From Pyxicephalus adspersus (lineage: Eukaryota; Chordata; Amphibia; Anura; Pyxicephalidae), in the NCBI RefSeq assembly GCF_032062135.1, contig NC_092859.1, forward strand, positions 36,660,286-36,724,285: a DNA stretch of 64,000 nt, read 5' to 3'. Position 1 is the first letter of the stretch. Each line of letters starts with the position of its first letter. The position numbers and the translations under genes are program-made. The notes under the pieces are model-generated. The model was not told the origin of the DNA and did no database searches. It was given only the letters and a program-made list of their open reading frames with translations. Below are positions 9,608-9,676 of this stretch, one piece after another.

Positions 9608-9676
9608 ACCAGTCATTTGTGGACACTGGCAAGTTCCTCAGTACAGGCTCTCTGCAGGGCTTGGCCTTCTCCTGAA
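9608..9676 (+). CDS. EBF1: Candidate alternative exon giving a different EBF1 C-terminus
   Basis: Seen directly: a good pyrimidine-rich acceptor ending TCATCAG at 9607, then 69 bases, then GTATGT, a donor-like hexamer, at 9677. Joined to the last base of the upstream exon, the frame reads 22 residues, DQSFVDTGKF then LSTGSLQGLAFS, and stops at TGA 9673-9675. The length is a multiple of three and the phase is 1-1, so it behaves like a cassette exon. The stop lies one base before the donor, so splicing on to 11840 should not trigger nonsense-mediated decay. Used instead as a terminal exon, the AATAAA at 9981 could end the transcript. I cannot confirm from memory whether this exon is documented in other vertebrates; transcript support is unknown. 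Confidence 0.5.

What the first reader, a model, noticed from the sequence alone, without database searches (positions are those of the whole stretch)
9608..9676. Unassigned exon in the last EBF1 intron that would swap the protein's C-terminus
A 69-base segment with a strong acceptor (TTTTGTCTTCCCTCATCAG) continues the EBF1 frame for 22 codons (DQSFVDTGKF, LSTGSLQGLAFS) and then stops. A GTATGT donor follows one base after the stop. A clean in-frame reading with matched phase and both splice signals is unlikely to be chance. The product would lack AISGMIAPPM and carry a new tail. The stop position next to the last junction would avoid nonsense-mediated decay.
Basis: partly seen in the sequence, partly recalled or inferred. 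Interest (0 to 1): 0.75.

Follow-up and report, generated by a model that had tools for sequence, protein, structure and literature searches.

The report
Conserved alternative tail exon of EBF1

Summary
The 69 bases at 9608-9676 lie in the last EBF1 intron, follow a strong acceptor, join exon 8647-8841 in phase 1, encode DQSFVDTGKFLSTGSLQGLAFS, stop with TGA, and are followed by GTATGT. It is not chance: 119 of the 120 proteins listed (of 1883 found) by a search with the last 86 residues end in this tail; nearly all are named COE1/EBF1 or unnamed, from amphibians, reptiles, birds, mammals and fishes, four frog entries identical throughout. A ray COE1 carries it too. So it is a real alternative C-terminus, but 'unassigned' is wrong: databases already list it in COE1 isoforms. 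Not seen stated elsewhere: two EBF4-like proteins of one skink end in a homologous tail (score 47; 5000 shuffles reach 26.5), and a tree without tails puts their clade beside COE1. None of 59 COE3 and 89 COE2 proteins examined carries it. The exon probably predates the EBF1/EBF4 split. Whether it is a cassette exon (weak donor) or a terminal exon, and what the tail does, is untested: no RNA data were available.

The parts
6360..6425 (+). EBF1 coding exon (HLH helix repeat EVILKRAADLVEALYGMPHNNQ)
7408..7585 (+). EBF1 coding exon (EIILKRAADIAEALYS...NQ|G), ends in phase 1
7900..8079 (+). EBF1 coding exon (GFTRNTSS...SPYA|), ends in phase 1
8647..8841 (+). Penultimate EBF1 coding exon (IVPSSPTMASS...GTSLQ|), ends in phase 1; donor GTAAGA
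9588..9607 (+). Pyrimidine-rich acceptor of the alternative exon, ending CATCAG
9608..9676 (+). Alternative tail exon: DQSFVDTGKFLSTGSLQGLAFS, stop TGA at 9673-9675, one further base A
   Evidence: conserved in COE1 proteins
9677..9682 (+). Candidate donor GTATGT (weak: the base before it is A, not G)
9981..9986 (+). AATAAA in the intron, a possible poly(A) signal if the exon is used as a terminal exon (rival reading); may be chance
11840..11869 (+). Start of the usual last exon: AISGMIAPPM, then a stop (3' UTR continues beyond)

Best explanation
The segment is an old alternative 3' coding exon of EBF1. Including it makes an EBF1 whose last ten residues (AISGMIAPPM; AISGMIVPPM in mammals by recall) are exchanged for a 22-residue tail DQSFVD..K[FY]......SL[QP]GLAFS; skipping it makes the usual protein. 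Both tails join the same phase-1 junction after SLQ, so the choice is one or the other. Shown: sequence, phase, both splice signals, conservation of the tail in COE1 proteins of jawed vertebrates, and a homologous tail in an EBF4-like protein. Inferred: that the exon is spliced as a weak-donor cassette whose stop lies one base from its end, so that the usual last exon becomes 3' UTR and decay is avoided; and that the tail alters partner binding at the end of the C-terminal activation/condensate domain, leaving DNA binding and dimerisation untouched.
For: Exact anatomy. 119 of 120 listed hits end in the tail. In all, 140 of 290 fetched proteins do; the 138 tails of 22 residues fall into 23 distinct sequences that match the window's at 13-22 of 22 positions, with Q2, S3, F4, V5, D6, K9, G18 and L19 invariant. 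Carriers include frogs, Xenopus laevis, Ascaphus, salamanders, turtles, birds, squamates, mammals, gar, bowfin, sturgeon, carps and a ray (P0174). EBF4-like P0276/P0277 end DQTFEESDKFHTPPRSLQGLAYS, aligning at score 47 with the window tail against at most 26.5 in 5000 shuffles. The tree without tails joins that clade with COE1, support 95/97. The tail peptide matched once in the window's own genome, at this place.
Against: No transcript evidence was seen. Many carriers are named 'isoform X' or hypothetical, that is, gene predictions, some of which may borrow from each other, although each needs the open, conserved DNA in its own genome. The donor is weak. DNA of other species could not be read, so conservation of the splice sites is not tested. 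The EBF4 link rests on one skink species; the third EBF4-like protein fetched (P0274) ends in the usual kind of tail. The function of the tail is unknown from any call.
Confidence: 0.88

Rival explanations
1. Same exon, same protein, but used as an alternative terminal exon: the donor is ignored and the transcript is cleaved and polyadenylated in the intron after AATAAA at 9981, giving a separate 3' UTR of roughly 330 bases (inferred length).
For: Weakest donor of those scored, and AATAAA 305 bases beyond the exon.
Against: GTATGT sits one base after the stop, hard to explain if unused; AATAAA or ATTAAA occurs twice more before the last exon, so one hit means little.
Confidence: 0.25
2. A poison exon: inclusion marks the mRNA for nonsense-mediated decay and so lowers EBF1.
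For: Premature stop relative to the usual reading.
Against: The stop lies one base from the last possible junction, inside the usual 50-55 base limit (established knowledge), and a conserved peptide is not needed for a poison exon.
Confidence: 0.03
3. A chance open frame between chance splice signals.
For: Introns can hold chance candidates: 0.5% of Markov copies gave one.
Against: 119 of 120 listed proteins carry the tail.
Confidence: 0.01
4. A diverged duplicate of the usual last exon, as the H2d helix exon is held to be a duplicate of H2a (PMC2394523).
For: Same phase at the acceptor.
Against: No similarity between the two tails: 27% of 2000 shuffles score as well. Short peptides give little power.
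Confidence: 0.03

Closest known systems
COE1/EBF1 isoforms with this tail in NCBI and UniRef (for example Nanorana parkeri isoform X1, Hyla sarda isoforms X2 and X4, Lepidochelys kempii isoform X1)
   Same: Tail identical or similar, same junction after SLQ.
   Different: Only the species and a few residues; by their names these are predictions.
EBF4-like protein of Tiliqua scincoides, named 'COE3-like isoform X1' in the database
   Same: Homologous 23-residue tail at the same junction.
   Different: Another paralogue; one residue longer; about half the residues differ.
COE3 alternative ends (for example P0127 and four similar mammalian entries)
   Same: Also replace the usual tail after the same LQ junction.
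   Different: Unrelated sequence by shuffle test.
H2d cassette exon of vertebrate EBF genes (PMC2394523)
   Same: An extra exon kept in the EBF family since early vertebrates.
   Different: That paper found no evidence of skipping in jawed vertebrates; it is a duplicate of a neighbour and lies in the HLH domain.

Membership tests
COE1 (EBF1) gene | COE-type HLH and C-terminal exons nearest to COE1 | tested here: met
   Pfam COE1_HLH E 7.2e-11; best 86-residue hits are COE1
COE1 (EBF1) gene | DNA-binding and IPT domains | not tested
   The bait found exons only from the HLH region on; the upstream DNA was not fetched
Conserved alternative COE1 tail isoform | Tail DQSFVD..K after the SLQ junction, then stop | tested here: met
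Conserved alternative COE1 tail isoform | Transcript that joins 8841 to 9608 | not testable with these tools
   No RNA data on hand
Cassette exon | Acceptor and donor in matching phase | tested here: met
   Phase 1 in, length 69, phase 1 out; donor weak
Cassette exon | Donor conserved in other species | not testable with these tools
   No vertebrate DNA besides this genome was on hand
Tail shared by all EBF paralogues | Presence in COE2 and COE3 | tested here: not met
   0 of 89 COE2 and 0 of 59 COE3 proteins fetched, after moving two carriers classed as COE3 by body to COE1; 46 of the 89 and 49 of the 59 end in neither tail, so the lists are rich in odd predictions. Capped lists: not proof of absence from the genomes
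Tail shared by all EBF paralogues | Presence in EBF4 | tested here: met
   2 of 3 EBF4-like proteins, both from one skink species; the EBF4 label is mine, from the tree and recall

The most novel reading that the evidence does not exclude
EBF1 and EBF4 share an ancient C-terminal switch, older than their own duplication and lost from or never present in EBF2 and EBF3, that exchanges a short hydrophobic end for a conserved acidic-aromatic motif and thereby retunes coactivator or condensate behaviour of the EBF1 C-terminal domain in some tissues.
Probability: 0.35. Interest if true: 0.55.

Novelty: already known. Interest (0 to 1): 0.33.

Why it matters
EBF1 is a master regulator of B cells, and its C-terminal domain is reported to open chromatin, recruit Brg1 and form condensates with FUS (passages seen of the reviews PMC10839018 and PMC8039525). 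A second, deeply conserved C-terminus means that work done on one isoform may not describe the other. The exon is in databases, but a search of the open-access library for the tail peptide letters found no paper, and phrase searches on EBF isoforms showed none about this tail among the rows listed (two searches listed 20 of 920 and 25 of 4563 papers). Subscription papers were not searched. A direct functional test may therefore be open.

Tried and rejected
Chance frame, poison exon and duplicate of the usual last exon: considered and set aside. Solved structures: no meaningful match for the last 86 residues, best E 0.23. Repeats around the exon: only short two-copy families and imperfect inverted pairs. 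Rfam (gathering threshold) and tRNA scans of the window: none. Text search for the tail peptide letters: 0 papers. Structure prediction was not tried: a 22-residue tail of a domain thought to be disordered would not be informative. EBF2/EBF3/EBF4 genes of the window's own genome could not be read because the genome search was busy.

Rows and limits: P0001 was kept in the counts as the one of 120 without the tail. P0064 and P0113 were classed as COE3 by the body comparison but are named ebf1a and COE1 and have COE1-like penultimate exons, so I count them as COE1. P0065 and P0112, tail carriers classed as COE1, bear the UniRef name COE4. P0273, P0280 and P0284 lack the body motif used for cutting and were classed whole. 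Each protein search lists only its best 120, and carriers rank first, so the share of carriers is not the share of isoforms. The regions given left out the last residue of the query.

Full report
What is there. The window's start holds the 3' end of an EBF1 gene on the + strand. Four coding exons precede the segment: 6360-6425, 7408-7585, 7900-8079 and 8647-8841. The last of these ends in phase 1 after SLQ. The usual last exon begins at 11840 and gives AISGMIAPPM and a stop. Between them, 9608-9676 continues the frame as DQSFVDTGKFLSTGSLQGLAFS, then TGA, then A, then GTATGT.

Chance. With rough splice matrices (recalled frequencies) the acceptor scores 9.3, against 2.4-9.4 for the other five EBF1 acceptors; the donor scores 1.3, below the other four (3.0-6.8). 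With thresholds set at these observed values, no other candidate of the same kind exists in the intron or on the + strand of the window, and 0.5% of 400 Markov copies of the intron gave one or more. That test is post hoc; the comparative evidence is what counts.

Conservation. A search of 5.8 billion proteins with the last 86 residues found 1883 proteins and listed 120. Of these 120, 119 end in the alternative tail and one (P0001) does not. The names given by the sources are mostly COE1/EBF1 isoforms, some are unnamed proteins, and two bear a UniRef name COE4. They come from frogs (Mantella, Hyla, Nanorana at 100% identity), Xenopus laevis, Ascaphus, salamanders, turtles, birds, squamates, mammals, gar, bowfin, sturgeons and other fishes. 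A COE1 of the ray Narcine also ends in it (P0174). Of all 290 proteins fetched, 140 carry it or a homologue; 138 tails have 22 residues and fall into 23 distinct sequences, 13-22 of 22 identical with the window's, with eight invariant positions. If the ray tail is orthologous, the exon goes back at least to the ancestor of jawed vertebrates. In the window's own genome of 1.44 Gb the tail peptide matched once at E up to 0.001, at this place; a tail as diverged as the skink's might not reach that threshold.

Paralogues. A query with a COE3 body and the tail listed 69 further proteins: 59 of COE3 type, none with the tail, and 10 of COE1 type, all with it. Of the 59, 10 end in the usual way and 49 in something else; one replacement end at the same junction recurs in five mammalian entries (P0123, P0124, P0127, P0135 and, with a different finish, P0162) and is unrelated to the COE1 tail. 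P0127 stands for a cluster of 1421 sequences, whose tails I did not see. A query with a COE2 body listed 101 further proteins: 89 of COE2 type, none with the tail (43 usual, 46 other ends); 9 of COE1 type, all with it; and 3 of a fourth type, of which 2 (P0276, P0277, skink Tiliqua) end DQTFEESDKFHTPPRSLQGLAYS and one (P0274) ends in the usual kind of tail. The skink tail aligns with the window's at score 47, while 5000 shuffles reach at most 26.5. In a tree from which all tails were cut, the skink protein and a carp-family 'COE3-like' protein (P0274) form their own clade (99/95), which joins COE1 (95/97) apart from COE2; COE3 is left unresolved at the base of that group. I read the clade as EBF4; the database does not name it so. 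Daburon and co-workers (PMC2394523; abstract, section 'The coe gene family' and passages seen) describe four gnathostome classes, with a mammal-only EBF4 group as a poorly supported sister of the rest. My tree differs in the place of EBF4; with 18 rows, midpoint drawing and no outgroup it is not decisive. The simplest account is one origin before the EBF1/EBF4 split, with EBF2 and EBF3 either lacking or having lost the exon. Absence from listed proteins is not proof of absence from the genomes.

How it probably works. Inclusion gives a protein with 22 new last residues instead of ten. The stop is one base from the exon's end, so if the donor is used, the only downstream junction lies within the usual limit and decay is not expected (established knowledge). 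If the donor is skipped, AATAAA at 9981 could end the transcript. The protein is the same either way. The tail sits at the end of the C-terminal domain that reviews describe as needed for binding of closed chromatin, Brg1 recruitment and FUS-linked condensates (passages seen in PMC10839018 and PMC8039525). The conserved pattern, DQSFVD near the junction and SLxGLAF at the end, looks like a short binding motif; that is inference, and no partner is known to me.

Known or new. The exon is annotated: NCBI, UniRef and nr hold COE1 isoforms with the tail. In the open-access library, a search for the peptide letters found no paper, and searches by phrases on EBF isoforms showed no paper on this tail among the titles and abstracts listed. 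Only PMC2394523 was opened for it; the 12 of 20 passages shown mention a choice of exon-8 donor but not this tail. So it is known as sequence, and its biology appears open within what I could search. The shared tail of EBF1 and an EBF4-like protein is the one point that I did not see stated.

Verdict. A correct and sharp observation of an exon that is conserved, old and already in databases. Interest is modest for discovery and somewhat higher as an untested isoform of a well-studied regulator.

Noticed in passing
window 49225-52212 (+): Looks like a DIRS-type retrotransposon: reverse transcriptase match (RVT_1, E 2.8e-07) in ORF 49225-50331, a weak GDSL/SGNH-hydrolase-like ORF at 51766-52212 (below Pfam's cut-off), and between them an ORF that resembles a tyrosine recombinase by recall only (no Pfam match). 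G+C rises to 0.57 at 48-50 kb.
   Followed up: partly
window 19187-19588 (-): ORF of 133 codons that resembles the end of a LINE reverse transcriptase by recall; no Pfam match.
   Followed up: partly
P0123, P0124, P0127, P0135, P0162 (mammalian COE3): COE3 has its own recurring replacement end after the same LQ junction, beginning GSLLGAED, unrelated to the COE1 tail.
   Followed up: partly
P0001 (Sinocyclocheilus grahami COE1 isoform X1): The predicted protein contains the penultimate exon twice in a row, which is either a local exon duplication or an assembly or prediction error.
   Followed up: no
P0105 and P0175 (fish COE1-A): These carry an extra V between LQ and DQSFVD, as if a neighbouring acceptor three bases upstream were used.
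   Followed up: no
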